Below are positions 25,559 to 56,500 of a stretch of DNA of 64,000 nt, one piece after another. Source of the stretch: Paraescarpia echinospica (lineage: Eukaryota; Annelida; Polychaeta; Sabellida; Siboglinidae); the NCBI GenBank assembly GCA_020002185.1, contig CM034533.1:36375024-36439023 (forward strand), read 5' to 3'. A model generated the notes under the pieces. It had not been told where the DNA came from. It did no database searches and saw nothing but the letters and a program-made list of their open reading frames with translations. The position numbers and the translations under genes are program-made. Numbering within the stretch: position 1 is the first letter of the stretch; every line of letters starts with the position of its first letter.

Positions 25559-25720
25559 AGTAGTAATAGCGGAGGTTCAGCGCGCACCGAATCCGTTTTT
25601 CCGTCGGTGGAGTGGAGGTCAAAGGTCAGGGTCAAGTACCCGGATGTAAGTCAAGATCAAAGGTCAAATACCCGGATGTAGGTAAAGTGGCGTCCACTGA
25701 CGGATAGTTTGTGGACTAAA
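25559..25720. mobile_element. Polinton TIR fragment, unit 1
   Basis: Starts AGTAGTAATAGCGG directly after the GCCGTC target site and ends at GTTTGTGGACTAAA. It matches the first 162 bp of the left TIR of the complete Polinton at 40,912. The tandem-duplication breakpoint lies here, within a short ACTAA microhomology. Confidence 0.95.
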
Positions 25721-32467: not shown

Positions 32468-32629
32468 AGTAGTAATAGCGGAGGTTCAGCGCGCACCGAA
32501 TCCGTTTTTCCGTCGGTGGAGTGGAGGTCAAAGGTCAGGGTCAAGTACCCGGATGTAAGTCAAGATCAAAGGTCAAATACCCGGATGTAGGTCAAGTGGC
32601 GTCCACTGACGGATAGTTTGTGGACTAAA
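32468..32629. mobile_element. Polinton TIR fragment, unit 2
   Basis: Same 162-bp TIR start as in unit 1, ending at the same GGACTAAA breakpoint. Confidence 0.95.
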
Positions 32630-39285: not shown

Positions 39286-40911
39286 TTATAGCACCATTGG
39301 TAGCCGCCTCTGACCCATCAACATTCCGCATGGGGACACCTTAGTGCTGGTGTGTACCGAAGCACGGTATGCGCACAGGGCATTCGGAAGATGGTCTTCG
39401 CAGTTTTGTGGGTGTAGCCTGGCATACGTGAAGATCATAATTTGGACGGTGCGGTTAAAACTGTCAACCAATCCGTCTGATTGCGGACGGTATGGTATAG
39501 TTAGCGTCTTATCGATTCGCATGATGCAACACACCTCCTGAAGAATGTTATTGTCACATTCCCTTCCCCGATCGGAATGAAGCTGTCTTGGACCGCAAAA
39601 TCGACAGAATACCTCTTTGACTAGTTTATCGGCTACTGTGAGTGCTCCTTTGTCGGGTACGGGGAAGGCTTCGATCCATTTCATTAAATAATCTTCGACG
39701 ACTAGAACGTATTTGTTTCCGCTTACCGAGTTGGCATTGGACCTAATAGGTCCATAGCTGTACGTTCCCAGGGAGTCAGAGGAGCGCGATGTGGAGCCGA
39801 CGCCGGTTTGCGTTGTCCAAAAGTCTCTACACAGGGGGGTGAGCCACCGTCTGACGTCCTCTGACATCATGCATGGAGGCAAGTGGTTTGTTATGGCCCA
39901 TGGCCTTCAAAGGCAGTCGCAGTGTACCGCCTGGAAAAGTCGCCGTCTCATTAGCGAAGGTACCTCATGTTGGATTATCTCGTCGGTGTCACAATTGGGT
40001 TTCTTCTTATGATAGAGAATGCCATCCACAATGGTCAACCTGTCCCGCTGTTGCAATAAACACTTGGTCATGTAATCTTGGTTCCTGATTTGTGCAAATG
40101 GTAGTCTCTGGATACGTGTATCCTTGTGAAGGAGCATACAATCACAGCTCTCCTCTTCGCTTTGTTAGCGACGTATGTCCGCTAACGTCACACCTGGGAC
40201 CCACTGCACAGCAAGTAATCCGGTTTCCGCGACTTTCTCCGGAGACGGCGAACAGTCGTTAAAGTGGCTGGTTGAACTAGATTGGGAAGATTGAAGTTTG
40301 GGTGGATCCACGACTTGTTCAGCAATCTCTTCCTACAAGAGATTGTTATTGGACAGTGCAGGGACAACATCATTGTGATTTTAATTGGGCTGCTGAAGGG
40401 TTGTTGCTGATTGCACGTAATTGGAGTGCAATCCTTGTACTCTGACCGCTTGCATGGTCGTGACACCTTGCGGGAGAGTGCATCAGCACTACCCATCGAG
40501 CTTCCTGGTCGATGGACAATCTGGAAATCATAGGCACCATGGGTGACGAGCCACCGTTCAACCATTCCTTCAGGTTCTTTAAAATTAAGTAACCAAGTCA
40601 GTATCGCATGATCAGTGATAATCGTGAATAGTCAGTCTCACAGATAGTGGTGGAATTGTTTGAAAAAGGTCACTACAGCCATCTCCCTGTGTGTTATGCA
40701 GTTATCGAGTCTGCGTACGAATGAAGGTTTTATATGTATAGGCAATGACTCTTTCACCTCTGCACTGGCATCGGTATACAACACAAACTCGTAATTTCGA
40801 GTGGGGTATGCCAAAACAGATGTTTCACAAAGGACCTGTCGAAGGGCTCGGAACGCCTTCTCTTTGGTATCTGACCATGTAAAAGAACGCTTTGCCCTCG
40901 TCATGGCCGTC
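39286..40911 (-). pseudogene. Ty3/gypsy pol 3' half, unit 3 (interrupted by the Polinton)
   Basis: This copy is contiguous with the complete Polinton. Going leftward it holds the RNase H start (SFTWSDTKEKAF), a deletion after YTDASAEV relative to units 1 and 2, the IVHRPGSSMGSADALSR segment, the zinc-binding region (about 39,907-40,137) and the integrase core (SGNKYVLVVEDY, WIEAFP, LHSDRG, DGLVDSFNRT). The stretch that should carry the first catalytic Asp is in a different frame just upstream of SGNKY, so the integrase is frameshifted. The pol frame enters the GCCGTC target site here, and its upstream half resumes at 52,626. Confidence 0.93.
40906..40911. repeat. Left 6-bp target site duplication
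   Basis: GCCGTC directly before the left TIR, matching 52,620-52,625. A 6-bp duplication is characteristic of Polinton/Maverick insertion. Confidence 0.95.
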
Positions 40912-40969
40912 AGTAGTAACAGCGGTGGTTCAGCGCGCACCGAATCCGTTTTTCCGTCGGTGGAATGGA

Positions 40970-41040
40970 GGTCAAAGGTCAGGGTCAAGTACCCGGATGT
41001 AGGTCAAGGTCAAAGGTAAAATACCAGGATGTAGGTCAAA
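40970..41040. promoter_or_regulatory. AGGTCA-motif cluster at left terminus
   Basis: Five or more AGGTCA-like hexamers in about 70 bp, including a perfect direct repeat with 1-bp spacing (AGGTCAAAGGTCA) and AGGTCAAGGTCA. This is the arrangement bound by nuclear receptors of the RXR/HNF4 type. Whether it is a host-factor site or a subterminal transposition repeat cannot be told from sequence. Confidence 0.45.
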
Positions 41041-41400
41041 TAGCGCCCCCTGGCGGATAGTTTGTGGACTAAAATAGCGCCCCTAGCGGATTTTTTTCTG
41101 AACTAAAACGACACAAGTAGCGCCCCTGGCGGATTTTTCGGAACTTAAATAGTACACGTCGCGCCCCCCCAGCGAGTTCTTTCGGAACTTAAAAAGTACA
41201 AGTTGCGCACCGTAGCGGATTTTTTTTCGGAACTATTTTCCCTGGCGGATAAGTCGTGAACTACAACCAACAGTGGTGCCACCTTACGGACAATGTTTGG
41301 ACTAAATATAGGAGTACAGCCTAATTTGGTGCGTCTTATTTATGAAAATCGGCGCCCCCTGGCGAACTGAAAGAGAAGTACAAATAACTCCCCCTAGCGG
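41041..41400. repeat. Subterminal GCGCCCCTAGCGGAT repeats
   Basis: Six to eight degenerate units of about 40-60 bp. Each has a GCGCCCCTRGCGGAT core followed by a T-run, TTCGGAACT or GTGAACTA, and AAATAGTACA. The right TIR has the mirror set at about 52,120-52,490. Repeats just inside the ends of DNA elements often bind the transposase or integrase. Confidence 0.75.
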
Positions 41401-41520
41401 ATTTCAGTGAACCAAATATCGATACTGCTTATGTCCGTGTCTCTTGTTTCTTTTTTCTCTTTTTACTATAAAAATAGGTCAAAGATGTCATTAAATAGGT
41501 CAGTGACGTCGTTAAATAGG

Positions 41521-41540
41521 CCATTGCGCATGCGCAATGG
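41521..41540. promoter_or_regulatory. Perfect 20-bp palindrome with NRF1-type site (left TIR)
   Basis: CCATTGCGCATGCGCAATGG is a perfect inverted repeat containing TGCGCATGCGCA, the consensus for the metazoan factor NRF1. It is retained identically in the right TIR. Confidence 0.6.
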
Positions 41541-42325
41541 TGTCTTTTCTTATGTCCCATAGGTTGTCGACCATTTGTTTAGGTGTAGGCCTCTCCTAGC
41601 CTAGCCTATACATTTACAACGTTAAAATAAGTCCAAACCTGACGAATAAATATAGAGAACTAATAAAATAAGTCAAATTATGGCATATCTGATCACCATA
41701 CAGATCTACGACCTACCCCTCACCATGTTTGTACATTTTTGCCTATCAATTATTACTTGCACACGTCGACTTCTTCCGGTATTATCAAATAGGTGTTTGT
41801 CAATTTGCGTACCCATGTATGTTATTAATGGCAGACGTTAAGTGATTCCTGAACATGTAACATTCTTTGAGACATCTTTATCAACAAAATTGAGGTCTCG
41901 CAATGTTTTAACATTCATCAGTGCTATAGTTTTTAAACAACGCTACAGTTTTACATTTGCACTTACCACAGTTGATTACCCGGATGCAAGCTGGTATGAA
42001 CATGTACATATAGCGGTGGTCTACCTGGGACGGTTGATGCGGCGCGGAGGAAGAGGAATGGAGACCCCTGACTGATAGATCATGAACTACAAACATCATC
42101 CCTGACGGATATCGATGAACCAAATATCGGTACTGCTTAAGTTCGTGTCTCTTGTTTTTGTCAAGTGCTTACTCCTGGTGGATACATCATCATAAACTGA
42201 AAGCACCACTGTTACATAAGTGGTGAACTAAATAACTACTCTTCGGTCCGTGTTTTTGCACTTTCTACTCTGAGGTCCATGCTTTTGATTTTTCAATTCT
42301 TCAGTCGGTGATCTTTCGGCACGCC

Positions 42326-42430
42326 CACGTGACCTTTATGTTCTGTTCCATAATCTTTCGGCACGCCCACGTGACTTTTCGGCACATTCACTAACCATAT
42401 AAGCGCGGTGTTTTGCCAATCGGACAGGCA
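42326..42430 (+). promoter_or_regulatory. Left TIR promoter
   Basis: Two CACGTG E-boxes, each within GGCACGCCCACGTGAC (42,326-42,331 and 42,368-42,373), then TATAAG at 42,398-42,403 and GCCAAT at about 42,415. An inferred start site near 42,430 places the first usable ATG at 42,450 (ACCATGG context). It would drive the NADAR gene rightward. Confidence 0.6.
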
Positions 42431-42449
42431 ATCGTATCACGACGACACC

Positions 42450-42659
42450 ATGGTCAACATCATGTTGAAAACACCGAACTACCACACTCCTGCGGCCTTC
42501 AGCGACAGCGACGTAGACGAACCGTGTTGCCGACCGTTCGAAGCATCTGTCAGCCGACCACAGTCACCGGACCGACCACAGTCACCGGATGTCAACCGAC
42601 CAGTCGTTACGTCAACCTCAACCCGAACCGGATGTTGCTGTGAAACCGAAACGAGTTGA
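42450..42659 (+). other. Disordered leader ORF in left TIR (out of frame with NADAR)
   Basis: From the ATG in ACCATGG the frame reads MVNIMLKTPNYHTP, then an acidic SDSDVDEP stretch and a tandemly duplicated RPQSPD segment, and stops at 42,659. The same leader type (MKKTPYY..., SDEDEP) begins the RPA-like gene at the other end. Aligning the two copies, the left has about 10 extra bases near 42,617, which places this leader one frame away from the NADAR domain that overlaps it from 42,589. Either the leader is a relic and NADAR starts on its own ATG, or the gene is frameshifted in this copy. Confidence 0.5.
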
Positions 42660-43083
42660 ATTTTCAGGGGCCGACTCACCCTTGTCAAACCTTTACCCAT
42701 GCAGGGTCGAAGCATTCGGTCGGGTCTTTAATTCGGTCGAGCATGCCTATCAATACAGGAAGGCATTGTATCACGGCGACGTCGAATGCGCAGAGCGCAT
42801 CAAAGCTGCGAAGCATACGCGATTGGCAAAACGAAAAAGCAAACAGATTGGAGAGACGAGATCTGGTTGGAACGATGTCCGTGTTCAATGGATGCAGCAT
42901 TTGCTCCTCGCAAAGTTCAAGGCTTCAAAGGATTTGCGAGCCGTATTGTTGGCAACCGGAAATGCTGAACTGGTGGAGCGTGAATCATCGAAAGAGGGCT
43001 TTTGGGGACTTGGTCGTGGCTACAAAAATGGACGAAACACTCTCGGCAAACTATTGTGCAGTGTCCGCGAAAATTACTTGTAG
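42589..43083 (+). CDS. NADAR-domain protein (YbiA-like)
   Basis: A 164-residue protein covering a full NADAR domain (Pfam PF08719 type). Visible family blocks are FSGADSPLSNLYP (25-37), FNSVEHAYQ (47-55, with the conserved Glu51), a Trp94-Arg98 helix, GNAELVE (124-130), FWGLGRG (138-144) and NTLGKLLCSVR (150-160). NADAR enzymes cleave N-glycosidic bonds; some remove ADP-ribose from guanine bases and others act on riboflavin intermediates. It is the only plus-strand gene of the Polinton and is driven from the left TIR. Its start is uncertain: ATG 42,589 is the first in-frame Met, whereas the TIR leader ORF is in another frame. A role against host ADP-ribosylation is inference. Confidence 0.88.
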   Translation: MSTDQSLRQPQPEPDVAVKPKRVEFSGADSPLSNLYPCRVEAFGRVFNSVEHAYQYRKALYHGDVECAERIKAAKHTRLAKRKSKQIGETRSGWNDVRVQWMQHLLLAKFKASKDLRAVLLATGNAELVERESSKEGFWGLGRGYKNGRNTLGKLLCSVRENYL

Positions 43084-43210
43084 ACACTGCGTTGTGTAAT
43101 GTCGACACTTCATTGCAAGACTCTGTGTCATAGCAGTGACGAAACATTGTTCAGTCTCTGATTCTTGTAGTTATGGAGTGTGACATGTAAATACGTTTGA
43201 GTAGTACACG

Positions 43211-43216
43211 AATAAA
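43211..43216 (+). terminator. Polyadenylation signal after NADAR
   Basis: AATAAA 128 bp downstream of the NADAR stop codon. Confidence 0.5.
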
Positions 43217-43290
43217 CTGTGCAAACCTCATCTTGGGTCTTTTTCATAGTGTAATGCAAATCATACTCATTGTCTTAAGCCCTCATGTAT

Positions 43291-43550
43291 TCACTCACTC
43301 ACTCACTCACTCAGCCACTCACTCACTCACTCACTCACTCACGCCCTCACTCACTCACTCACTCACTCACTCACTCACTCACTCACTCACTCACTCACTC
43401 ACTCACTCACTCACTCACTCACTCACTCACTCACTCACTCACTCACTCACTCACTCACTCACTCACTCACTCACTCACTCACTCACACAAGCCCTCACGC
43501 ATTCACTCACTCACCCACTCATTCAATCACACAAGCCCTCACTCACTCAC
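43291..43550. repeat. (TCAC)n microsatellite inside the Polinton
   Basis: About 260 bp of near-perfect TCAC tetranucleotide between the convergent 3' ends of the NADAR and protease genes. The Leu-Thr-His-Ser open frames through it are artefacts. Confidence 0.97.
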
Positions 43551-43718
43551 GTCCTCCCTTCGTCGCTTTTCTAACATTTTATCTTTTCTTCATGTTAAAG
43601 GATAGGGAAATATTGAGTGTCTGAATAAAACATTTCACAAACGCACATATGGTGTCGACTTTTGTATTGCTTAATTAAGGTAATACAAGAACGTGCATGC
43701 CAACGTTACATGCAAACC

Positions 43719-44171
43719 TTACATGGCACTCTTAACAAAATCGAAAACACGACAGTCATTGTTCACTAAATCGTTCCCGAAAGTGTTCACAAACGTCTTC
43801 TTGGGTACGCCACGACTTCGGTGCAGCAAGTACACGACACAGTATTGTCTACACACGTTAGACAGCGGGCACTGAAGCGTTCTCTTGTTGAATGTCCAAG
43901 TCACGCAGTTGCTCTGTAGAAAATCCACGAATTCGACGTGTCGAGGTGGCAAACCGTAAGAGTCGAAGTATTCTCCACATCCGTCTTTTGCAATAAACAT
44001 GCAGATCCAATGTTGACCCGGTTCATCGCTCGAATGAGTGTTGCACACGAAAGCTGCCGGATAGGTCGTCATAGGAGTAGTGGGTAACCCGTCTTTAGGT
44101 AGTACGCCTCGAACAACGGTCCTAGTGTAAGCATCCGCCGCAAGGAGTCTTTCTATCTGTGCCGTATCCAT
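43719..44171 (-). CDS. Adenain-type cysteine protease (maturation protease)
   Basis: A 150-residue C5-type protease as found in Polintons and adenoviruses, where it cleaves capsid and core precursors during assembly. The catalytic set is visible in the usual order: His54 in GQHWIC, Asp70 in EYFDSYG, Gln100 in LQCPLSN, and Cys107 in SNVCRQYC, seven residues after the Gln. One oddity is Arg directly after the nucleophile (CRQYC), where the family usually has Gly. Its ATG overlaps the stop of the capsid gene by one base (TGATG), so the two are tightly packed. It is the last gene of the minus-strand block. Confidence 0.93.
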   Translation of the reverse strand: MDTAQIERLLAADAYTRTVVRGVLPKDGLPTTPMTTYPAAFVCNTHSSDEPGQHWICMFIAKDGCGEYFDSYGLPPRHVEFVDFLQSNCVTWTFNKRTLQCPLSNVCRQYCVVYLLHRSRGVPKKTFVNTFGNDLVNNDCRVFDFVKSAM

Positions 44172-45463
44172 CAGTAATCGTAGACGACGTTTCTGTTGCG
44201 GTCTATCTCCAAAACCGTCTCGAATTCTCCGTAGACGACGACGTTGATCGTTTGGTCGAGAGGTTGATTAAAGTGCATCTCGACTCGTAGGTTGCCTTTA
44301 TGTACCAAATTGAAATGGGGACCGTCACAACAATCTGGTGTGATGTCAAACGCAAACAGGGTGTATCCTTTGCCAAACTCGTCCTGACTGATGTTGTTTC
44401 CCTCGTCTTGAAACATATTTCCCGTTCCAGCAAATAGATTACTGTAACTTCTCACGTAGGCGCCATCGTTGAAATTAGACTGGAGTGGTTTAGCGACGTC
44501 GACGTACAATGCAAGAAAGTTCAAGTTGTTGTGCTTTACGTGGAACTGATTCTTGGCGAATGTTCCATTGTAAGCGTCGTTGTCTACACAACACAAGACT
44601 ATTCTCTTGGGTAAGACACCCAAATAAACGTTTTCGTGAGTGTGCGACATGGCACCTCGCGGTATGGAAAATACCTTGCAATCGACTCTTCGCAACGGAT
44701 ACTTGGCCGTTCCCTTTTGTAGCGCTTTGATGTGACCCATCTGTACTGCATGATTCAGTTTGGCTTTTCTTGCAAACAAAATTGCTTCGACCATGCATAC
44801 CTTGTAACCGGCATCATCATCATCAGCAGCCATGAGTGCAAAAGCATCCTTGCTCTGTACTAGTCGAATTTTCACGTCGACGCCGTTCAATAGATAGCGG
44901 TCTTGGAAGAAAAGGTCGACGTGTAGACGACCCATCATGTCGACGATTCGACTACGGGTAATATAGGTCTTTCTGTTTTGCAGACCCTTGTTTGTGTCGT
45001 CTGTGGCATCCATGTGTCCAGTCGTGTCTTTGTACCACAAGGCAGTAGTCAGTTGACTCTTCTTCGCTTCTGCTCCGTGACTCAGTAACGTTTCTATATA
45101 CGCACGATAAGGATAGGTATTCGCTGAAGGTGTGACGAGGGTACCGTTCAAAGACACGTCGACTTGACTAAACAGAGAATGCATCCAGTTGTTTACTAGT
45201 CCAACAGGTGCGGCTTGATGGATGTCGTCCCCGTTTCCTTTGAATACACGTGCTCGCACCAACAGGTAAGTATTGGCCATGTCCAAGTAATCGTCTCCCG
45301 ATCCGGGCAATAAGAATTCGATAGGACCACCCGTACCTATCGAGGCGACAGGTCGATGCTCGATCCATTGTGCGTGTTCGATACTCGTTTGTCTCGTCGG
45401 TAAACTAAACAGGTCCAATTCGCTTTTGACTCCCTCACACGACAACTGGTGGACAAAAGCCAT
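44171..45463 (-). CDS. Major capsid protein (hexon-like, double jelly roll)
   Basis: A 430-residue protein. The N-terminal region (about residues 24-80: TRQTSIEHAQWIEHRPVAS, PIEFLLPGSGDDYLDMANTY) is the conserved block of the Polinton proteins often labelled F54H12.2-like in animal genomes and identified as double-jelly-roll major capsid proteins. The length is normal for the family and the frame is intact. It forms the capsid shell with the penton encoded upstream. It starts 2 bp after the stop of the basic core protein. The assignment rests on family resemblance; the fold is not visible from sequence alone. Confidence 0.88.
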   Translation of the reverse strand: MAFVHQLSCEGVKSELDLFSLPTRQTSIEHAQWIEHRPVASIGTGGPIEFLLPGSGDDYLDMANTYLLVRARVFKGNGDDIHQAAPVGLVNNWMHSLFSQVDVSLNGTLVTPSANTYPYRAYIETLLSHGAEAKKSQLTTALWYKDTTGHMDATDDTNKGLQNRKTYITRSRIVDMMGRLHVDLFFQDRYLLNGVDVKIRLVQSKDAFALMAADDDDAGYKVCMVEAILFARKAKLNHAVQMGHIKALQKGTAKYPLRRVDCKVFSIPRGAMSHTHENVYLGVLPKRIVLCCVDNDAYNGTFAKNQFHVKHNNLNFLALYVDVAKPLQSNFNDGAYVRSYSNLFAGTGNMFQDEGNNISQDEFGKGYTLFAFDITPDCCDGPHFNLVHKGNLRVEMHFNQPLDQTINVVVYGEFETVLEIDRNRNVVYDY

Positions 45464-45465
45464 GT

Positions 45466-45882
45466 CTAGCCGAATATGTCGTCTCGACGCGTCTTCTGTC
45501 GTCTGCGTCTCTTGGCGACACTGGCTAGGGTTCTCGTCGGCTTGCGTTTTATAGTGCGAGGAACGTCGCGTATGCCCGGAGGCCCACTGCTTCCCAAAAC
45601 TCTATCGATCATGTCTTTTCCTGTTTCTTTCACACGCCTCTTTGCAGATTCTTTAATGCTCTGTCCAGACAACACGTCGCCGGCCACGCCCAAACCTGTC
45701 TTTAACGCTCCTTTTCCCAAAGCGAGTGCACCTCTTTTTATGAATGGCATAGCACTTCGAATGAGGCCACCGAACAAACTACCTAGACCGTGACCTCGTT
45801 GCACTCTTGCCCCAACAAACACGGGCAATCCGTCGCCGACTTGTCTGACGTAGTAGTCTTCGTAGGAATGATTACGACTCAT
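45466..45882 (-). CDS. Small basic virion/core protein
   Basis: A 138-residue protein with three parts: a short N-terminus (MSRNHSYEDYYVRQVGDG); a Gly/Leu/Ala-rich amphipathic segment (about 31-72: GLGSLFGGLIRSAMPFIKRG, then ALKTGLGVAGDVLSG); and a strongly basic tail (KRKPTRTLASVAKRRRRQKT) suited to DNA binding. Equivalent small basic proteins sit between penton and capsid genes in animal Polintons and are compared with adenovirus pVI or core proteins. GLG and GGL sites could be protease targets, which is inference. Its ATG overlaps the penton stop by 4 bp (ATGA). Confidence 0.75.
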   Translation of the reverse strand: MSRNHSYEDYYVRQVGDGLPVFVGARVQRGHGLGSLFGGLIRSAMPFIKRGALALGKGALKTGLGVAGDVLSGQSIKESAKRRVKETGKDMIDRVLGSSGPPGIRDVPRTIKRKPTRTLASVAKRRRRQKTRRDDIFG

Positions 45883-46667
45883 GTTTCAAAAAATGATGGT
45901 TTGCGTCGTCGAAAGTGAAGTGTTACCGTCACTCTACCTCGCTCGGATGGTGCGCGAAGTCCCGTGTCGTCTCTTATATCGATCTCGATGGTCGTAAATT
46001 CTTTGTGTAAGACGGGAACGTATTGTACATTATCAAAACTGTTTGACACAACGTCTCCGTGTTTTCCTTCTATGGGTATAACCCTGAACATAGGGACGAC
46101 GGTATCCCCGACCACACGTGGTTCCACAACGTCGGTGTAGACGTACAGCGAGTAAAAACCCTGCGCCATGTCTACCACAGATTCGGCTTTTTTAACGTAA
46201 TAATAATCTGGTCCTTCTTCTTCGGGTGCGGTGTAAACAGCCTGGCTTAAACCTAGCAAACGCTGAAGTTTCAACGAGTACACTGAGAATGAGATGTTTT
46301 CTATCATGTGTATAGTCACTTTTTGTGTGATGTCACTGTAGCTCAGTTTTATTTGCTTTTCTTTTATCGGTGACTTTATGATTCTGTTGATTGCACGAAT
46401 GAGCGCTTGGGGACTCCCGTAGTGGCCTGCCTCGATATTCACCACATAACGCGTACCATCGACATTCACGGCAAAATAAGTGTCCTCTTCTCTCACGTTG
46501 TACCAACTGTGCGGGTATTGAATTTCCACCAGTACGCACTCCCACTGACCGACTAAACTGATGCGTTGCGGCAAAGCCGTGACATAGTGGGTCAACGTGT
46601 TGTCGGGATTTAACTCCACAAACGCGTTGCTGGGCAATGTCAGGTAAAAATCAGACGACATGTTCAC
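45879..46667 (-). CDS. Minor capsid protein (penton, single jelly roll)
   Basis: 262 residues opening SDFYLTLPSNAFVELNPDNT and followed by WECVLVEIQYPHSWYNV. This is the conserved N-terminal signature of the Polinton penton/minor capsid protein, which occupies the capsid vertices. The frame is intact and ends HFRRRKPSFFET. It overlaps the upstream membrane-protein gene by 17 bp and the downstream core gene by 4 bp, consistent with compact co-expression. Confidence 0.88.
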   Translation of the reverse strand: MNMSSDFYLTLPSNAFVELNPDNTLTHYVTALPQRISLVGQWECVLVEIQYPHSWYNVREEDTYFAVNVDGTRYVVNIEAGHYGSPQALIRAINRIIKSPIKEKQIKLSYSDITQKVTIHMIENISFSVYSLKLQRLLGLSQAVYTAPEEEGPDYYYVKKAESVVDMAQGFYSLYVYTDVVEPRVVGDTVVPMFRVIPIEGKHGDVVSNSFDNVQYVPVLHKEFTTIEIDIRDDTGLRAPSERGRVTVTLHFRRRKPSFFET

Positions 46668-46923
46668 CGCGTTTCATAGACGGATTAGGTAACAGGTATC
46701 CCAGGCAACTGCTCAACAAAGCCGTCCACAGATTAGAGTTTCCGTCTATTTTAGTCAGGTTGTAGATACTGACCAATATAACGGTGTACAGTATGACGAT
46801 TTGGCAGAAGAAGACGATTTCCGATTTCGGGCACGTATTTCCAAACAACACCCAACTTTTGCTGTTACTTCCGGTATCTTCGAGCTCTGTGTTTTTGAAT
46901 CGAACGTTCGTCGTATCTTCCAT
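46651..46923 (-). CDS. Small two-helix membrane protein
   Basis: 90 residues. A polar N-terminus is followed by a strong transmembrane segment (about 35-56: IVFFCQIVILYTVILVSIYNL) and a second, weaker hydrophobic segment (about 65-78: LWTALLSSCLGYLL) ending in LPNPSMK. Small membrane proteins of this layout accompany the capsid genes in animal Polintons; their function is unknown to me. It lies between the integrase (27-bp gap) and the penton (17-bp overlap). Confidence 0.72.
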   Translation of the reverse strand: MEDTTNVRFKNTELEDTGSNSKSWVLFGNTCPKSEIVFFCQIVILYTVILVSIYNLTKIDGNSNLWTALLSSCLGYLLPNPSMKRGEHVV

Positions 46924-46952
46924 GACACGAATGACGGCTCGATCGGTGTGTA

Positions 46953-48077
46953 CTAACCTTTATACGCGACGAGCGACGCTTTATCCAACCAGCTGTTGAA
47001 CGAGTCGGGATACCCTACCCACTTGATCAGGACCTGTGTCTTTTTTCCTCGCTTGCGCTGCTGCAACACTTTCTCGATACGATAGAGTTTATCCTCGGCC
47101 ACAACCACTTTCTGTAGTTCTTGTGCGTAAAATGTTCCCTCTATCGGCGAATCTTGATCATCGATCAAACGATAAACAGACGGATCGGAACGATGAACTG
47201 TTTTGACGGTAAATATCTCGTCACTCCAGTTGTGTAAGTAACCTTTTTTGAATTGTCTCTTGACTTTGCTGATATGCACGTGATCGCCCACTTTTAAAAC
47301 CGGTTTGACTTTTCCGTGTCCTTCTTTTCCGTACAACCTTTGCCAAATCTCTTCTTGATTGATCACGTTCACTTCAGACGGCGCCATTCCAATACTTCTA
47401 TGATAACTGTCGTTGTACGAATCGATTAGGTGGTGTAATACGTCCAGGTACATTAACGTCTGGTTTTTCGTGAAATATCTCCACATACGGTTCTTCAGAG
47501 TACGTTTGAAACGTTCCACGATACACGCCTTGGTCTCTTCGTTGTGTGTCGTAAAATGGTGGATACCTTTCTCTTTCAGAAACTCTTGCAGTTGCCTATT
47601 CAGAAACTCTTTTCCTTGATCCGTCTGCAATGACAGTGGGCCATCGTTGTCCTTTAACAACTGACGAAACGCCGTCGCGAGTGACGGCCCCGATTTGTTC
47701 TTCAATGGAACAGACCACGCTTTCTTGGAGAACACGTCTATCACGGTCAAAATGAAAGTGTGACCGTCGTTGTATCTTTTCAAACGTGACATGCCTACCA
47801 GATCGGCCTGCCATTGTTGATTTATACCACCCACTAAGACACGTCTACGCCTGAAACGATATGTCACTGGTTTATGTAGTGTGTAAGTGTCTTGTTCCGA
47901 CAACCACCGTTTCACCTCTTTCGACGATGCACGTGAAGCATGTGAAGCATGTGAAGCACGTGAAGCACGACGCAGGGTATCAACGCCTCCGTAACTTCCG
48001 GTTAGTTTCGTGTCGTAGTAAACACTTTTCAATGCATCGTGTGAACGCTTCGTCTTCTTACTTACGCGAGGAGACAT
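46953..48077 (-). CDS. Polinton integrase (DDE, rve) with chromodomain
   Basis: 374 residues. The N-terminal part includes WLSEQDTYTLHKPVTYRFRR. The DDE core has Asp92 (WQADLVGM), Asp153 (LQTDQGKEF) and Glu188 (CIVERFKRT). The last two are 35 residues apart, the canonical D,D35E spacing. A C-terminal chromodomain-like region (about 330-370) holds YRIEKVLQQRKRG, VLIKWVGYPDSFNSWL. It joins element ends to target DNA, giving the 6-bp duplication seen here; the chromodomain may guide target choice. A SRASHASHASRAS stretch near residue 40 comes from a short tandem repeat in the DNA. All catalytic residues are present and the frame is intact. Confidence 0.95.
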   Translation of the reverse strand: MSPRVSKKTKRSHDALKSVYYDTKLTGSYGGVDTLRRASRASHASHASRASSKEVKRWLSEQDTYTLHKPVTYRFRRRRVLVGGINQQWQADLVGMSRLKRYNDGHTFILTVIDVFSKKAWSVPLKNKSGPSLATAFRQLLKDNDGPLSLQTDQGKEFLNRQLQEFLKEKGIHHFTTHNEETKACIVERFKRTLKNRMWRYFTKNQTLMYLDVLHHLIDSYNDSYHRSIGMAPSEVNVINQEEIWQRLYGKEGHGKVKPVLKVGDHVHISKVKRQFKKGYLHNWSDEIFTVKTVHRSDPSVYRLIDDQDSPIEGTFYAQELQKVVVAEDKLYRIEKVLQQRKRGKKTQVLIKWVGYPDSFNSWLDKASLVAYKG

Positions 48078-48113
48078 GTCGTAATAATGCTGGTGTCGTG
48101 TCGTGCAAAAATA

Positions 48114-48854
48114 TTAATACGGTTCCCAACGGAAGTGTTGCAATGGTGTGGCCGAATGAGCTGCGCGCCGTGGCGACACCGGACGTCTTCGATGCCGATG
48201 ACGAGCCCTGTCAAACGGATTGCTTTTTTCCTTTGATATATCGTCGTCCTCTGACACTGTCTGCATGTAAGTCCAACGATTGGGGTTACCCACTAAATCC
48301 ATGGGCGTGTTCAAATCCTTGAGACTACGAGCGAAGGTTTTCCATCCCACCGGTTCAAACGACTTCCGTTTTATCAACACGTCATTCACAAGGTCCACGA
48401 TATTACTTCCGGGAACCGCCTTGTTTCTGTACATCATCTCGCCGCGATCGTTCCAACTTACGGCACCTTTCATTTTATTGATGAGTCATCGTGCTTTCTG
48501 TTTCATAGCTTTCGGCACGCTGTCGATGATTTCGTTTTCGATGCTCTCCTTTTCGACGACTTCCTTTTCGTTAGCAGGTTGTACTTCGTTTTTGACTTTG
48601 CTGGGAAATTTATCGATGGCTACACGCAGCGGTTCCTGCATACGCTTGTCGGAAAGATCGTTGTATCGACTCAACACCTAGTTATACAACACGACCTTTT
48701 CCCTCTCGTCCATATCGCTTTGTTCTAATATGTAACGCATTTCGGCATCGAGTCGCCGCAAAACGCTCCCTATAGGATTGGTCGAAGGAGGTTGCAGTTG
48801 AACGTTATCCAAAATACGTGGATCGACCAGCGCCATCTTCTTTGTGTGCTCCAT
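48114..48854 (-). pseudogene. Polinton ORF of unknown function, broken by two stops
   Basis: One reading frame runs from ATG 48,854-48,852 (MEHTKKMALVDPRILDN) to the stop after HFRWEPY at 48,114, about 247 codons, but is cut by TAG at codon 59 (48,678-48,680) and TGA at 48,486-48,488. All three pieces stay in one frame and look protein-like throughout (YILEQSDMDEREK; GSNIVDLVNDVLIKRKSF; GWKTFARSLKDLN), so these are point stops and not frameshifts. A related protein occurs between integrase and core genes in animal Polintons as I recall them; its role is unknown to me. The gene is probably inactive in this copy; recoding or sequencing error are less likely alternatives. Confidence 0.75.
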
Positions 48855-48864
48855 AGTCGTGTAG

Positions 48865-49203
48865 TTACGACTGCAACAACGTCGTCACCAACGGGGCTAG
48901 AAGGGACGTAGCCAAGGGAGCTAGTAGGGCCGCAAAGAAACCACCTTTCTGTAGAATACGTTTCTTCTTATGAAGACCGGTTTTCCTGATGACCAAGGTT
49001 CTGAGGTCCTTCTTGTACCGACGCAGTTTAGTCTTGTGACCTTTCTTTAGTGGTACGTTCCCTTTTAATATGTTCTGTGCACACTCGCACAGATTGTGTA
49101 CCAGATCGGGTTTTCCCTTGTCGATGATGGCTCTGGCCAAAGCAGGATCCGCTTTGGCGAGGAGACAAAGGCACTACGCGTTTCTCTTCACTCGCGCCGA
49201 CAT
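48865..49203 (-). pseudogene. pX-like core protein, broken by an early stop
   Basis: From ATG 49,203-49,201 the frame reads MSARVKRNA and then meets TAG (49,174-49,176, codon 10). It then continues without interruption through ALARAIIDKGKPDLVHNLCE, a Lys/Arg-rich region and a hydrophobic end (GGFFAALLAPLATSLLAPLV). Basic plus GG plus hydrophobic tail recalls adenovirus core peptide pX, and such proteins are typical of animal Polintons. There is no Met codon after the stop, so ordinary re-initiation cannot make the conserved part. Its end lies 10 bp before the start of the next ORF. Confidence 0.75.
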
Positions 49204-49235
49204 GACGAATGACGAGTGTCACGGCGTGTTTCTAT

Positions 49236-49871
49236 TTATATCTTCGGAAGGTAGGCATATTGAAATTTGTTTGGTTCCTTAACGATATTAGTACGCAGGC
49301 GCACGTGTTCCGGTGTGTCCTGTTTGAGGTCGACGAACAAATACCCGTGTGGTACGGACGTCGCGTCTCTGAATGCTTCTTGCATGTACTTTATTCGACC
49401 CGGATACATCTGTTTGGCCAAGTTGACCACTTGTGTATTGTCGCGAGGGTTCTTGAAAAGTACCATGTACTGTGCATTTATACTTATAGTGCGACTCTCT
49501 TTCCCTTTGGGAAATACATTTTGTACTAAATATATTACGAACGTGTTGCAATGATGACTCTTCTTCGTAAACAGTTTGGTGAACCTCTCGTCCGTTTCCG
49601 ACATGAGATCGTCGATAATTACCAAGTTTCTCGTTTTAGGATCGAAAGACGACACATCGGGAAGACCTTCGACAAATTCTATGTTCGGATGTATCGTAGA
49701 GAGCGTGAAATACAACGCCTGCCATTCACCGTAACACCACGTGATCTTTTCGGACGGTGATTTTACGAGTGTGGCAGAATGACGTAGTAAAGAGACAACA
49801 AACGTCGTTTTACCACAGCCCGTCGGCCCAGCAACGATACAAGTAAAAGGATGAACTAACCTCGTGTCCAT
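49236..49871 (-). CDS. Genome-packaging ATPase (FtsK/HerA, A32-like)
   Basis: 211 residues. Walker A is GPTGCGKT (15-22), Walker B LVIIDD (83-88), followed by a polar sensor position in IYLVQNVF (113-120). Length and layout match the Polinton packaging ATPase, which pumps element DNA into the capsid. The frame is intact and starts at ATG 49,871, about 190 bp downstream of the small zinc-motif ORF. TATA-like ATAAG motifs just upstream (about 49,910-49,925) suggest it may have its own promoter. Confidence 0.93.
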   Translation of the reverse strand: MDTRLVHPFTCIVAGPTGCGKTTFVVSLLRHSATLVKSPSEKITWCYGEWQALYFTLSTIHPNIEFVEGLPDVSSFDPKTRNLVIIDDLMSETDERFTKLFTKKSHHCNTFVIYLVQNVFPKGKESRTISINAQYMVLFKNPRDNTQVVNLAKQMYPGRIKYMQEAFRDATSVPHGYLFVDLKQDTPEHVRLRTNIVKEPNKFQYAYLPKI

Positions 49872-49959
49872 ACTTTACGCAACTGATGAAAGAGACTAAT
49901 ATGCACGGTACTTATACTACTTATACTTCGAAAAATTACACAATATAAGGTTTGAACAT

Positions 49960-49965
49960 TTTATT
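49960..49965 (-). terminator. Polyadenylation signal between ATPase and upstream gene
   Basis: AATAAA on the minus strand about 96 bp after the stop of the small zinc-motif ORF. A second AATAAA overlaps that stop codon (50,056-50,061). These suggest that the RPA-like/small-ORF pair is transcribed separately from the ATPase-to-protease block. Confidence 0.45.
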
Positions 49966-50060
49966 CGTGAACAACACAAACGTATTTACATGTCACACTC
50001 CATTCACAGCAGTTGAATTAATGTCACCAAAGGTATCATAAAACCACAAGACATATTTAT

Positions 50061-50405
50061 TTACAGATCATCCTCCATTACTGCCAGAACAATTTGCTTT
50101 AATTTGTTTCGCCACTCCTCTGAAAACGGTTCTTGCAACCAACTCCCGATAGCACACAAGTGATCGGACGTCAGGTCGGATAGTTTCAAACCTGCGTCTA
50201 ACAAAACACTCAACCAGTCTTTCATCACTGCAGTTGAATTAATAGCCTCCACAGCCTCGTCAAAGTGCATATAAATTAGAATGTCATCGGGTAACATACA
50301 ATCGTGATGAAATTGACTAGGATCGTCTATCTCGCAAGCGAGACACTGCCGTCTCGATAGTTCAACGACGGCACACGCTATGTGACGTGCAATCGTCTTC
50401 TTCAT
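50061..50405 (-). CDS. Small CxxC...HxC protein, function unknown
   Basis: 114 residues from ATG 50,405. The N-terminus has RRQCLACEIDDPSQFHHDC, a CxxC followed by SQ and HxC that looks like a zinc-binding knuckle. The rest is helical with several Trp and Leu (FDEAVEAIN, GSWLQEPFSEEWRNKLKQIV). Similar small Cys/His-motif ORFs occur in animal Polintons as I recall them, without a known function. The frame is open a further 190 bp upstream (repetitive DVTTSA-type sequence, to a stop near 50,598) but has no ATG there. A CTGTTTCAG acceptor at about 50,570 makes a spliced N-terminus possible. Confidence 0.6.
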   Translation of the reverse strand: MKKTIARHIACAVVELSRRQCLACEIDDPSQFHHDCMLPDDILIYMHFDEAVEAINSTAVMKDWLSVLLDAGLKLSDLTSDHLCAIGSWLQEPFSEEWRNKLKQIVLAVMEDDL

Positions 50406-50625
50406 TTCGATCGCAGGAAACTCAAGCGTAAAGTTCGGACCGGCAGGAGCGGCAGTTGTAACATTGGTTGCGTGAGTAGAAATGGTGACATCGTCAGGAG
50501 CGGAAGTTGTCACATCGGCCGTGTCGGCGGAAGTTGTCACATCGGCAGGAATGGCAGCAGAGAGAGGCTGAAACAGGGTACGGAGCTAAGTGTATCACCT
50601 CCACGCGAGTGACGTTGAAGTTTGT

Positions 50626-51144
50626 TTAAGTATCTCGTCGAGTTTTCTTTATGGTGAGAGACACACGAGTTCCCGTCAGTGAGTTCAGTTTGTAAGTCTG
50701 CATCGTTTCGTCCATACCAGCAAACGTCTCGGCCTTCACGTCTTGGAGAACAGCCATACACTGGTCGAACAAAGTCAGCCATATAGATCGACCCGTCGCT
50801 GTCTCAACAAAGCACATGCGCACCACGAAATGCATGTCAGAGGCAACGTAACCGTGTCGTTCGCATTGCAAATGTCCCCTATCGTCGACAATCATACGCT
50901 TCTTGCAGTATCTGCACCCGTTGTAGAAGGGAGTATGCTGGCGTACTTTGACTATGAGGAGATCTCTGATCTTGATAACGGCGTCGGCCCTTACCGTTGC
51001 TTCTAGAGCCGAGATGTCCACGACGTTTGGTTCCGACGGCACGGCAGGGCGGTTGATCACCGCTATGATGGGTCGGCTCGTCGGCTCGTCCTCGTCGCTC
51101 GAGTCTGCCGCATTGCGAGGTCGGTAGTAGGGTGTCTTCTTCAT
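50626..51144 (-). CDS. RPA70 C-terminal-like zinc OB-fold protein
   Basis: 172 residues from ATG 51,144. A disordered acidic leader (SSDEDEP) encoded in the TIR precedes a domain resembling the C-terminal DNA-binding domain of RPA70: zinc ligands Cys77-x2-Cys80-x13-Cys94-x2-His97 in YNGCRYCKKRM and HLQCERHG, then FVVRMCFV, then RSIWLTLFDQCMAVLQDV, which matches the W-V-T-x-F block of RPA. Cellular RPA coats single-stranded DNA, so a replication or protection role is inferred. The upstream ATG at 51,201 lies 5 bp from the TATA box and is unlikely to be used. This is the first gene from the right TIR. No DNA polymerase accompanies it. Confidence 0.75.
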   Translation of the reverse strand: MKKTPYYRPRNAADSSDEDEPTSRPIIAVINRPAVPSEPNVVDISALEATVRADAVIKIRDLLIVKVRQHTPFYNGCRYCKKRMIVDDRGHLQCERHGYVASDMHFVVRMCFVETATGRSIWLTLFDQCMAVLQDVKAETFAGMDETMQTYKLNSLTGTRVSLTIKKTRRDT

Positions 51145-51179
51145 GATGATGTTAGCCGCGCTGTCGTCGTGATACGAAT

Positions 51180-51241
51180 GACGGTCCGATTGGCAAAACA
51201 CCGCGCTTATATAGTTAGTGAATATGCCGAAAAGTCACGTG
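51180..51241 (-). promoter_or_regulatory. Right TIR promoter
   Basis: Mirror image of the left promoter: an E-box CACGTG (51,236-51,241), TATATAAG (TATAAG at 51,206-51,211) and a CCAAT-type box just inside. The inferred start is near 51,180. It would drive the RPA-like gene leftward. Confidence 0.6.
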
Positions 51242-51948
51242 GGCGTGCCGAAATATCACGAATTGTAGAATAGAAAATTCAAAAGCACGGACCTCAGAGT
51301 AGAAAGTACAAAAGCACGGACTGCAGAGTAGTTATTTAGTTCACCACTTATCTAACAGGGGTGCTTTCAATTTATTATGATGTATCCACCAGGAGTAAGC
51401 ACTTGACAAAAAACAAGAGGCACGAACATAAGCAGTATCGATATTTGGTTCATTGATATCCGTCAGGGATGATGTTTGTAGTTCATGATCTATCCGTCAG
51501 GGGGAGTTTTGGGAATACAAGTTCATACCAGCTTGCATCCGGGTAATCAACTGTGGTAAGTGCAAATGTCCTATATAAAACTGTTGCGTTGTTTAAAAAC
51601 TATAGCACTGATGAATGTTAAAGCATTGCGAGACCTCGATTTTGTTGATAAAGATGTCTCAAAGAATGTTACATGTTCAGGAATCACTTCACGTCTGCCA
51701 TTAATAACATACATAGGTATGCAATATGCAAGTAATAAGAGACATTGATAGGGAAACATTTACAAACAGGGTGATGGGTGGGTCGTAGATATGTATGGTG
51801 ATCAGATATGCCATAATTTGACTTATTTTATTAGTTCTCTCTATCTATTCGTCAGGTTTGGACCTAGGTTAAAGTTGTAAATGTATAGGCTAGGAGAGGC
51901 CTACACCTAAACAAATGGTCGACAACCTATGGGACATAAGAAAAGACA

Positions 51949-51968
51949 CCATTGCGCATGCGCAATGG
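51949..51968. promoter_or_regulatory. Perfect 20-bp palindrome with NRF1-type site (right TIR)
   Basis: Identical to the palindrome at 41,521-41,540, about 650 bp from the element end in both TIRs. Confidence 0.6.
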
Positions 51969-52492
51969 CCTATTTACTACGTCACTGACCTATTTAATGA
52001 CGTCTTTGACCTATTTTTATAGTAAAAAGAGAAAAAAGAAACAAGAGACACGGACTTAAGCAGTATCGATATTTGGTTCACTGAAATCCGTTAGGGGGAG
52101 TTATTTGTACTTCTCTTTCAGTTCGTAACCTATCCGCCAGGGGCGCCGATTTTCATAAATAAGACGCACCAAATTAGGTAGTACTCCTACATTTAGTCCA
52201 AACCTTGTCCGTAAGGTGGTACCACTGTTGTTTGCAGTTCACGACTTATCCGCTAGGGGAAAATAGTCCCGAAAAAATTCGCTAGGGGCGCTAATTGTAC
52301 TTTTTAAGCTCTGAAAAAATCCGATAGGGGGTGCAAGTTGTACTTTTTAGTTCCGAAAAATCCGTTATGGGGCGCCACGTGTACTATTTAAGTTCCGAAA
52401 AATCCGCTAGGGGATGCTACTTTGTACCATTTTTAGGCCCGAAAAAAATCCGCTGTGTTTTAGTTCACAAACTATCCGCCAGGGCGCGCCAC

Positions 52493-52565
52493 TTGACCTA
52501 CTTCCGGGTGTTTGACCTTTGACCTTGACCTACATCCGGGTAATTGACCTGATCTTTGACCTCCA
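52493..52565. promoter_or_regulatory. AGGTCA-motif cluster at right terminus
   Basis: Complement of the left-terminus cluster: TTGACCTA, TTTGACCTTTGACC, TTGACCTA and TTTGACCTCC in about 70 bp. Confidence 0.45.
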
Positions 52566-52619
52566 CTCCACCGACGGAAAAACGGATTCGGTGCGCGCTG
52601 AACCACCGCTATTACTACT

Positions 52620-52625
52620 GCCGTC
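52620..52625. repeat. Right 6-bp target site duplication
   Basis: GCCGTC, identical to 40,906-40,911 in direct orientation. Confidence 0.95.
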
Positions 52626-55500: not shown

Positions 55501-56500
55501 NNNNNNNNNNNNNNNNNNNNNNNNNNNNNNNNNNNNNNNNNNNNNNNNNNNNNNNNNNNNNNNNNNNNNNNNNNNNNNNNNNNNNNNNNNNNNNNNNNNN
55601 NNNNNNNNNNNNNNNNNNNNNNNNNNNNNNNNNNNNNNNNNNNNNNNNNNNNNNNNNNNNNNNNNNNNNNNNNNNNNNNNNNNNNNNNNNNNNNNNNNNN
55701 NNNNNNNNNNNNNNNNNNNNNNNNNNNNNNNNNNNNNNNNNNNNNNNNNNNNNNNNNNNNNNNNNNNNNNNNNNNNNNNNNNNNNNNNNNNNNNNNNNNN
55801 NNNNNNNNNNNNNNNNNNNNNNNNNNNNNNNNNNNNNNNNNNNNNNNNNNNNNNNNNNNNNNNNNNNNNNNNNNNNNNNNNNNNNNNNNNNNNNNNNNNN
55901 NNNNNNNNNNNNNNNNNNNNNNNNNNNNNNNNNNNNNNNNNNNNNNNNNNNNNNNNNNNNNNNNNNNNNNNNNNNNNNNNNNNNNNNNNNNNNNNNNNNN
56001 NNNNNNNNNNNNNNNNNNNNNNNNNNNNNNNNNNNNNNNNNNNNNNNNNNNNNNNNNNNNNNNNNNNNNNNNNNNNNNNNNNNNNNNNNNNNNNNNNNNN
56101 NNNNNNNNNNNNNNNNNNNNNNNNNNNNNNNNNNNNNNNNNNNNNNNNNNNNNNNNNNNNNNNNNNNNNNNNNNNNNNNNNNNNNNNNNNNNNNNNNNNN
56201 NNNNNNNNNNNNNNNNNNNNNNNNNNNNNNNNNNNNNNNNNNNNNNNNNNNNNNNNNNNNNNNNNNNNNNNNNNNNNNNNNNNNNNNNNNNNNNNNNNNN
56301 NNNNNNNNNNNNNNNNNNNNNNNNNNNNNNNNNNNNNNNNNNNNNNNNNNNNNNNNNNNNNNNNNNNNNNNNNNNNNNNNNNNNNNNNNNNNNNNNNNNN
56401 NNNNNNNNNNNNNNNNNNNNNNNNNNNNNNNNNNNNNNNNNNNNNNNNNNNNNNNNNNNNNNNNNNNNNNNNNNNNNNNNNNNNNNNNNNNNNNNNNNNN
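55501..56500. other. Assembly gap (1,000 N)
   Basis: Exactly 1,000 unknown bases, probably a fixed-size scaffold gap, so the true distance is unknown. The bases just inside the right edge are CT-rich. Confidence 0.99.

What the first reader, a model, noticed from the sequence alone, without database searches (positions are those of the whole stretch)
40912..52619. Compact Polinton without DNA polymerase B
The element has intact ends, a 6-bp target duplication and the full morphogenesis and integration set. Every stretch large enough for a gene is already occupied by another gene, so the protein-primed PolB typical of Polintons is absent and not merely unrecognised. At 11.7 kb it is shorter than canonical elements. 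Either it is a deletion derivative that replicates in trans, or it belongs to a lineage using host replication, perhaps helped by the RPA-like protein.
Basis: partly seen in the sequence, partly recalled or inferred. Interest (0 to 1): 0.88.

Follow-up and report, generated by a model that had tools for sequence, protein, structure and literature searches.

The report
Two-part Polinton split between elements
This virus-like element, in a genome that is likely a deep-sea tubeworm's, has the shell and integration genes of a Polinton but no DNA polymerase, while separate companion elements in the same genome carry the polymerase and, where read, no shell genes, so the two likely serve as halves of one split virus-like genome.

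Summary
An 11,708-bp insertion with ~1.5-kb inverted ends and a 6-bp target duplication interrupts a Gypsy reverse-transcriptase frame and has no PolB. Two small genes carry in-frame stops, so the set is not fully intact. RPA-p159-ATPase without PolB recurs at other sites, so it is a lineage. A related, decayed copy has PolB in the same slot, so PolB was likely replaced. Recent members of the family come in two complementary kinds, each seen with its own ends and 6-bp duplications. One has ATPase, integrase, capsid, protease and NADAR genes and no PolB. The other has an open 1389-1390-aa PolB and, where read, none of those genes. They share one arm at about 98-99% DNA identity. PolB lies within 15 kb of 5 of 98 scored capsid genes; the four in the expected order have PolB matches with stops or in a broken frame. 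Best reading: a Polinton genome split into a polymerase segment and a capsid segment that likely complement each other in trans. Trans-replication is inferred, census lists are partial, no recent capsid element was read end to end, and an unsampled unsplit master copy is not excluded.

The parts
40906..40911 (.). target duplication GCCGTC, left copy
40912..42469 (+). left terminal inverted repeat
42408..42659 (+). leader frame that begins in the TIR and resembles the N-terminus of the RPA-like gene of the other arm
   Evidence: the same leader before NADAR in sibling L044
42589..43083 (+). NADAR-domain protein
   Evidence: PF08719 E 1.7e-28
43173..43244 (+). short repeat shared by both arms (inner arm border)
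   Evidence: I11; a similar stretch before ATPase in the PolB-bearing sibling L050
43291..43550 (.). TCAC microsatellite; similar repeats in several sibling arms
43719..44171 (-). protease-like gene (adenain/Ulp1 type, weak match)
   Evidence: PF00770 E 0.0025, below its cut-off
44171..45463 (-). major capsid protein, double jelly roll
45466..45882 (-). p138, conserved small protein of the family
   Evidence: no Pfam match
45879..46667 (-). predicted minor capsid (penton-like) protein; label recalled, no Pfam match
46651..46923 (-). TM90, small conserved protein (membrane-spanning by inspection only)
46953..48077 (-). retroviral-type integrase with chromodomain
   Evidence: PF00665 E 9.5e-16, PF00385 E 4.4e-7
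48114..48854 (-). p48 gene, two in-frame stops in this copy
48865..49203 (-). p91 gene, one in-frame stop near its start in this copy
49236..49871 (-). packaging ATPase (A32-like)
   Evidence: PF04665 E 3.5e-5, above its cut-off
49932..50003 (-). short repeat before ATPase: likely junction where the RPA-p159 arm replaced the PolB arm
50061..50540 (-). p159, conserved C-x2-C / H-D-C protein of unknown function
50626..51201 (-). RPA C-terminal-domain-like protein
   Evidence: PF08646 E 2.1e-6 (28.0 bits, cut-off 28.5); PF08646 precomputed for 13 of 27 relatives
51140..52619 (-). right terminal inverted repeat
52620..52625 (.). target duplication GCCGTC, right copy

Best explanation
The element carries the capsid and integrase genes of a Polinton family whose PolB gene is found on separate companion elements, and it likely replicates with PolB that those companions supply in trans. 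Shown: companions ('P' elements) have inverted ends, 6-bp target duplications, an open PolB frame, p48, p159 and RPA-like genes, and no ATPase, integrase, MCP or protease coding match in the stretches read. Shown, by putting together reads of different copies: recent capsid elements ('C') have NADAR, ATPase, p91, integrase, TM90, penton-like, p138, MCP and protease genes, an RPA-like and p48 arm (with whole p159 read in one such locus, L027/L042), and no PolB; the window copy has this gene set with the two arms exchanged. Shown: a decayed copy (L050) has PolB before ATPase with the arm-border repeat between them; replacement of the PolB arm by a copy of the RPA-p159 arm at that repeat would explain the window arrangement. 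Inferred: C would supply capsid, packaging ATPase and integrase, P would supply PolB for protein-primed copying of both from their similar ends, and RPA-like/p159 would handle single strands; the two lineages are predicted to persist because they complement each other. The window copy itself is older and probably no longer functional in p48 and p91.
For: Both ends read for two P elements (C4, 13,849 bp, AACATA on both sides; C10, 12,515 bp, GTCGTG on both sides) and one C element (C8, 13,499 bp by its end coordinates, CACTTA on both sides). PolB in L045/L046 is open for 1389/1390 aa; L046's has DANALYLW, K..GNSGYG and DTDS motifs (motif roles recalled); dN/dS between the two is 0.30. 34 of 121 PolB matches lie in a frame of at least 1360 aa, 31 of them with no stop inside the match (recount). 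32 of 121 PolB matches have RPA on the opposite strand 3.5-5.0 kb downstream, too short for the capsid block; 18 of 98 MCP matches have RPA at 2.0-3.7 kb downstream; PolB is within 15 kb of 5 of 98 MCP matches. P element L045 and 4 of 4 C loci compared share the p48 arm at 99.1-99.5% over 661-927 bp; one P and one C share the RPA stretch at 98% over 742 bp. Probes: 7 of 8 further long-frame PolB copies have p48 (3 of the 7 only its C-terminal part) where L045 has it; 4 of 4 further MCP copies (501-bp probes) match the C right arm and show no PolB. L054-L056: NADAR, ATPase, p91 and integrase matches with 0 stops in 3 of 3. L050: PolB - repeat - ATPase. One score is shared by 21 of 121 PolB rows and another by 18 of 98 MCP rows, which suggests recent spread of both.
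Against: No expression, particle or extrachromosomal DNA data. Match lists are partial: 98 of 4558 MCP, 121 of 3886 PolB and 150 of 3704 RPA first-look candidates were scored, so an intact unsplit copy could be missed; a census by end sequence and by ATPase was asked many times and never answered. For most of the 98 MCP and 121 PolB matches neither partner was located. No C element was read end to end: the inner 5.4 kb of the C8 element and 2.4 kb of the C4 P element were not read. 1 of 8 PolB probes (L063) showed nothing. In L055 and probes L070 and L071 the NADAR match changes frame near its C-terminus, L044 has lost a block, and one of the two penton-like genes has a stop in L055, L056 and L057. 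TIRs of P and C align at about 75-86%; within elements they are 98-99% in C8 and C10, but in the C4 P element the outer ~450 bp align at only 74%. P elements carry no integrase where read, so they too depend on something in trans. A second Polinton family with PolB and capsid in one element lives in the same genome (63 scored PolB copies) and could be the helper. Window copy: stops in p48 and p91, and RPA dN/dS against siblings of 0.36-2.56.
Confidence: 0.7

Rival explanations
1. P and C elements are two kinds of ordinary non-autonomous deletion derivatives, each moved by an intact unsplit master Polinton, either an unsampled member of this family or the second family (Escarpia type) in the same genome; they do not depend on each other.
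For: Unsplit relatives existed: L050, and 4 of 98 MCP matches with PolB upstream. The Escarpia-type family has PolB and capsid together on one contig (L001) and 63 scored PolB copies here at 93-94% identity.
Against: None of the 4 linked copies of this family has an undamaged PolB: three PolB matches carry stops and the fourth, L050, has stops and frameshifts over the gene. P and C keep open genes with dN/dS mostly below 1, unlike typical internally deleted derivatives. The Escarpia-type PolB is only 39-54% identical to this family's PolB; 30 of its 63 scored copies were tested and none had a scored RPA or MCP of this family within 15 kb. L001 shows no match to the window TIR, but L001 holds no inverted ends of its own, so that test is weak.
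Confidence: 0.2
2. The window element belongs to a PolB-free lineage that is copied by the host replication machinery with help from the RPA-like protein.
For: RPA-p159-ATPase without PolB recurs and the element encodes an RPA C-terminal-like protein.
Against: A PolB-bearing sibling has PolB in the same slot (L050); the RPA-p159 pair is also on the PolB elements, so it is not a substitute for PolB.
Confidence: 0.05
3. Assembly artefact: one long Polinton was broken or collapsed into two shorter models.
For: The assembly has gaps (1000 N at 55501-56500; gaps inside L043, L044 and L057).
Against: P and C elements have both ends and matching 6-bp duplications at different sites on chromosome-size contigs; the longest stretches read of these three elements contain no N (L045 and L046, L056; N not counted for L058-L061).
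Confidence: 0.02

Closest known systems
Polinton/Maverick (self-synthesizing transposon / polintovirus)
   Same: Inverted ends, 6-bp duplication, RVE integrase, A32-like ATPase, DJR capsid protein, and the order of the morphogenesis block shared with a PolB-bearing Polinton contig (L001).
   Different: No PolB in the element; PolB of the family is found on separate elements that lack the capsid block where read.
Polinton-like viruses (PLVs)
   Same: PMC11071308 (passages read) says that PLVs mostly lack pPolB.
   Different: The same passage says that they mostly lack the RVE integrase too and carry other replication proteins; here RVE integrase is present and PolB exists on companion elements.
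Bidnaviridae (bipartite, PolB-bearing ssDNA viruses)
   Same: Two linear segments with a conserved terminal structure and a Polinton-derived PolB (PMC4061559, passages read).
   Different: That paper speaks of a main segment encoding both capsid protein and PolB, and of a parvovirus-type capsid; here PolB and the DJR capsid are on different integrated elements.
Acheta domesticus segmented densovirus
   Same: A bipartite genome in a DNA virus family defined as monopartite (PMC10267136, start of abstract in the listing).
   Different: A parvovirus, not an integrating dsDNA element.

Membership tests
Polinton/Maverick | RVE-type integrase | tested here: met
   PF00665 E 9.5e-16
Polinton/Maverick | protein-primed PolB in the element | tested here: not met
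   no match inside the element at E<=1 with two PolB proteins; so the element is described as a PolB-less derivative of the family, not as a canonical Polinton
Polinton/Maverick | terminal inverted repeats | tested here: met
Polinton/Maverick | 6-bp target duplication | tested here: met
   GCCGTC; empty site
Polinton/Maverick | double jelly-roll major capsid protein | tested here: met
Polinton/Maverick | A32-type packaging ATPase | tested here: met
   PF04665 23.8 bits over cut-off 22.8
Polinton/Maverick | adenain/Ulp1 protease | tested here: inconclusive
   PF00770 18 bits, cut-off 21.3
Polinton-like viruses | lack of pPolB and of RVE integrase, with another replication protein instead | tested here: inconclusive
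   RVE integrase present and PolB of the family on companions speak against; but the source says 'mostly' and names a PLV variant, Tlr1, with RVE integrase
Multipartite (segmented) virus | complementary gene sets on separate molecules with common ends | tested here: met
   P and C elements; tips shared as AGTAGTAA, TIR bodies about 75-86% alike; as integrated copies, molecules not seen
Multipartite (segmented) virus | segments need each other for replication or packaging | not testable with these tools
   needs expression or mobilisation data

The most novel reading that the evidence does not exclude
A Polinton with a segmented genome: one integrating segment carries the polymerase, another carries capsid, packaging and integrase, both share one arm, and recent copies of both have spread through the same animal genome, next to the decayed unsplit ancestor from which they came by arm exchange.
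Probability: 0.55. Interest if true: 0.93.

Novelty: new variant of a known kind. Interest (0 to 1): 0.86.

Why it matters
Polintons are taken to be self-synthesizing: one element, one polymerase, one capsid. If the split is functional, it is a case of genome segmentation in a dsDNA, capsid-encoding integrating element, with an unsplit relative, the likely exchange junction and both halves preserved in one genome. That would make the old question of how multipartite genomes arise from monopartite ones directly readable from sequence, and it would offer a route by which PolB-less Polinton relatives could arise. I found no report of it in the papers held (searches; I saw listings, and passages of four papers).

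Tried and rejected
Rejected: assembly dropout at the TCAC microsatellite (siblings show what lies there). Rejected: C10:16085000 as an independent insertion; its right flank is 99.4% identical to the window's over 2.5 kb and only its left end differs, so it shares the right part of this locus. Led nowhere: MCP and p159 searches in viral contigs found no relatives; PDB sequence search with the MCP profile found none; RPA against PDB gave four weak rows, E 0.048-0.71, the last being Replication factor A protein 1; in PHROGs the NADAR protein matched a family of unknown function (8.9e-36), the integrase matched transposase families, and the rest had weak or no matches. First idea that the recent capsid elements lack integrase (from L044) was wrong: L044 has lost that part, L054-L056 have it. 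Unresolved: PolB-like fragments beside RPA in L031 and L037. L041 held no capsid or PolB match, only a p48 piece. Only 30 of 63 Escarpia-type PolB rows were put into the co-location script. The dN/dS table left out L002 and L010 (the window itself) and matches covering under 90% of a gene. Of the 30 RPA loci, 14 show neither ATPase nor NADAR after RPA.
Full report
What was claimed.

A PolB-bearing relative. Contig L001, filed under a bacterial symbiont of the tubeworm Escarpia laminata but carrying Polinton genes, has the same order from ATPase to protease at 39-64% protein identity, with a PolB frame just before ATPase (1409 aa, open at the contig start; PF03175 E 2.9e-9) and no RPA, p159 or NADAR match. 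The contig starts inside PolB, so what lies beyond is unknown. A piece of L001's PolB is 93-94% identical to 63 scored copies in the window's own genome. So the host is likely a vestimentiferan tubeworm (inference).

The host genome. The window lies in a 1.08-Gb genome. Scored matches: MCP 98 of 4558 candidates, RPA 150 of 3704, PolB of this family 121 of 3886. These lists are lower bounds.

Window-type siblings. Of 30 RPA loci read, 12 (including the window and its C10 near-copy) have RPA, p159 and ATPase in a row without PolB; 4 have RPA followed by NADAR. Of five stretches then read, four show the window order without PolB: L047 and L049 from RPA, L048 from p159 (its p48 mostly missing), L051 from ATPase (its RPA and p159 are in L011), each on through integrase, TM90 and penton-like to p138. 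MCP follows within L051 and, by position, in the other three. L051 is not independent: its right flank is 99.4% identical to the window's. Four other RPA loci whose tips were printed (L012, L014, L025, L036) sit in different flanks. So this is a lineage. Several of these copies are damaged: L047 and L049 have broken integrase matches and L048 one stop in it.

PolB was there and was likely replaced. The fifth stretch, L050, has PolB, a protease-like fragment, the arm-border repeat, then ATPase, p91, p48 and integrase. Its PolB carries many stops and frameshifts. The stretch before its ATPase is 91% identical to window 49849-49996 and 82% to window 43164-43254. In the window a repeat sits at the inner border of both arms (I11). 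The simplest reading is recombination at this repeat that replaced the PolB arm with a copy of the RPA-p159 arm (inference).

Recent capsid elements. Three right arms (L054, L055, L056) have TIR, RPA-like leader, NADAR, ATPase, p91, a p48 fragment, full integrase and TM90 onward; NADAR, ATPase, p91 and integrase matches have 0 stops in 3 of 3, but in L055 the NADAR match changes frame near its end. The other arm, seen in L005-L009, has protease and then p48 on the opposite strand, with RPA beyond at 2.0-3.7 kb from MCP in 18 of 98 copies. p159 was read whole on such an arm once (L027 with L042) and as fragments in L017. Of six right arms fetched, three are complete, one (L044) has lost a block, and two end in assembly gaps (L043, L057). 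Four further 501-bp probes all match this arm, three showing NADAR and one the leader.

Polymerase elements. L045 has an open PolB of 1389 aa, then p48 and p159 on the other strand, with RPA beyond. L046 has RPA and p159 before an open PolB of 1390 aa; RPA lies on the other strand beyond, and the 2.4 kb between were not read. Neither has an ATPase, integrase, MCP or protease coding match. L040 is a third, with a broken PolB. Seven of eight more long-frame PolB copies have p48, in three only its C-terminal part, at the position it has in L045; one shows nothing. Both ends were read for two P elements and one C element, and all three have matching 6-bp duplications.

Shared arm. The p48 arm of P element L045 is 99.1-99.5% identical to that of 4 of 4 C loci, up to one point, after which a 134-bp piece appears inverted. 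The RPA stretches of a P and a C element are 98% identical over 742 bp. TIR bodies are 98-99% alike within the C8 and C10 elements; in the C4 element the outer ~450 bp align at 74% and the inner 1.4 kb at 94%. Between classes they align at about 75-86%.

Linkage. PolB lies within 15 kb of 5 of 98 MCP matches, 4 of them upstream on the same strand as an unsplit element would have it. Of these four PolB matches, three contain stops; the fourth (L050) has no stop inside the 332-aa match but a broken frame over the gene. By contrast 34 of 121 PolB matches sit in a frame of at least 1360 aa, 31 of them without a stop in the match.

Selection. dN/dS against the window copy: MCP 0.24-0.57 (7 loci), p159 0.08-0.43 (23), ATPase 0.16-0.99 (15), penton-like 0-0.55 (9), protease 0.28-1.05 (9), integrase 0.56 (one of two loci; the other has no synonymous change), RPA 0.36-2.56 (31 of 32; one has no synonymous change), with a mean-pairwise ratio of 0.36 for RPA. 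P-class PolB pair: 0.30. So most genes have been under constraint; the window's RPA branch is an exception that I cannot explain.

Reading. The family looks like one Polinton genome that has become two elements. C would supply capsid, packaging and integrase; P would supply PolB; both carry RPA-like genes. Mutual complementation is inferred. The main rival is that both are passengers of an intact unsplit master, of this family or the second family. The partial census cannot exclude it.

Known comparisons. Polintons are described by PolB and RVE integrase (PMC6431247 and PMC11071308, passages read). The window element fails the PolB criterion by itself, so I file it as a PolB-less derivative of a Polinton family. 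Bidnaviruses are bipartite with a Polinton PolB, but are described with capsid and PolB on one main segment (PMC4061559, passages).

Noticed in passing
window 25559-25720 and 32468-32629: Two lone copies of the first 162 bp of the TIR (92%), same direction, 6.9 kb apart; no other Polinton gene match outside the element in the window apart from a weak integrase match at 39328-39720.
   Followed up: partly
L001 (QGON01000029.1): A Polinton contig with PolB and capsid genes is filed in a bacterial symbiont MAG of Escarpia laminata: likely host contamination.
   Followed up: yes
whole genome: A second Polinton family (Escarpia type) with 63 scored near-identical PolB copies, many in open frames over 1400 aa.
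   Followed up: partly
42408-42659 and 51140-51201: The TIR contains the start and leader of a coding frame, so genes at opposite ends (before NADAR, and RPA-like) begin with a similar peptide.
   Followed up: partly
L005, L006, L007, L009, L043, L044, L048, L055, L056, L057: Many capsid elements carry two penton-like genes in a row, one diverged to about 50-62% identity where read; one of them has a stop in L043, L055, L056 and L057.
   Followed up: no
L045 / L005, L007-L009: A 134-bp piece from downstream of the protease gene is inverted just where polymerase and capsid elements diverge.
   Followed up: no
C10:16080500-16097600: A near-copy of this locus whose right half and Gypsy flank match the window at about 97-100% (MCP with a disrupted middle), but whose left end and flank do not.
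   Followed up: partly
50626-51201: The window's RPA-like gene shows dN/dS above 1 against some siblings (up to 2.56).
   Followed up: no
55501-56500: Assembly gap of 1000 N.
   Followed up: no
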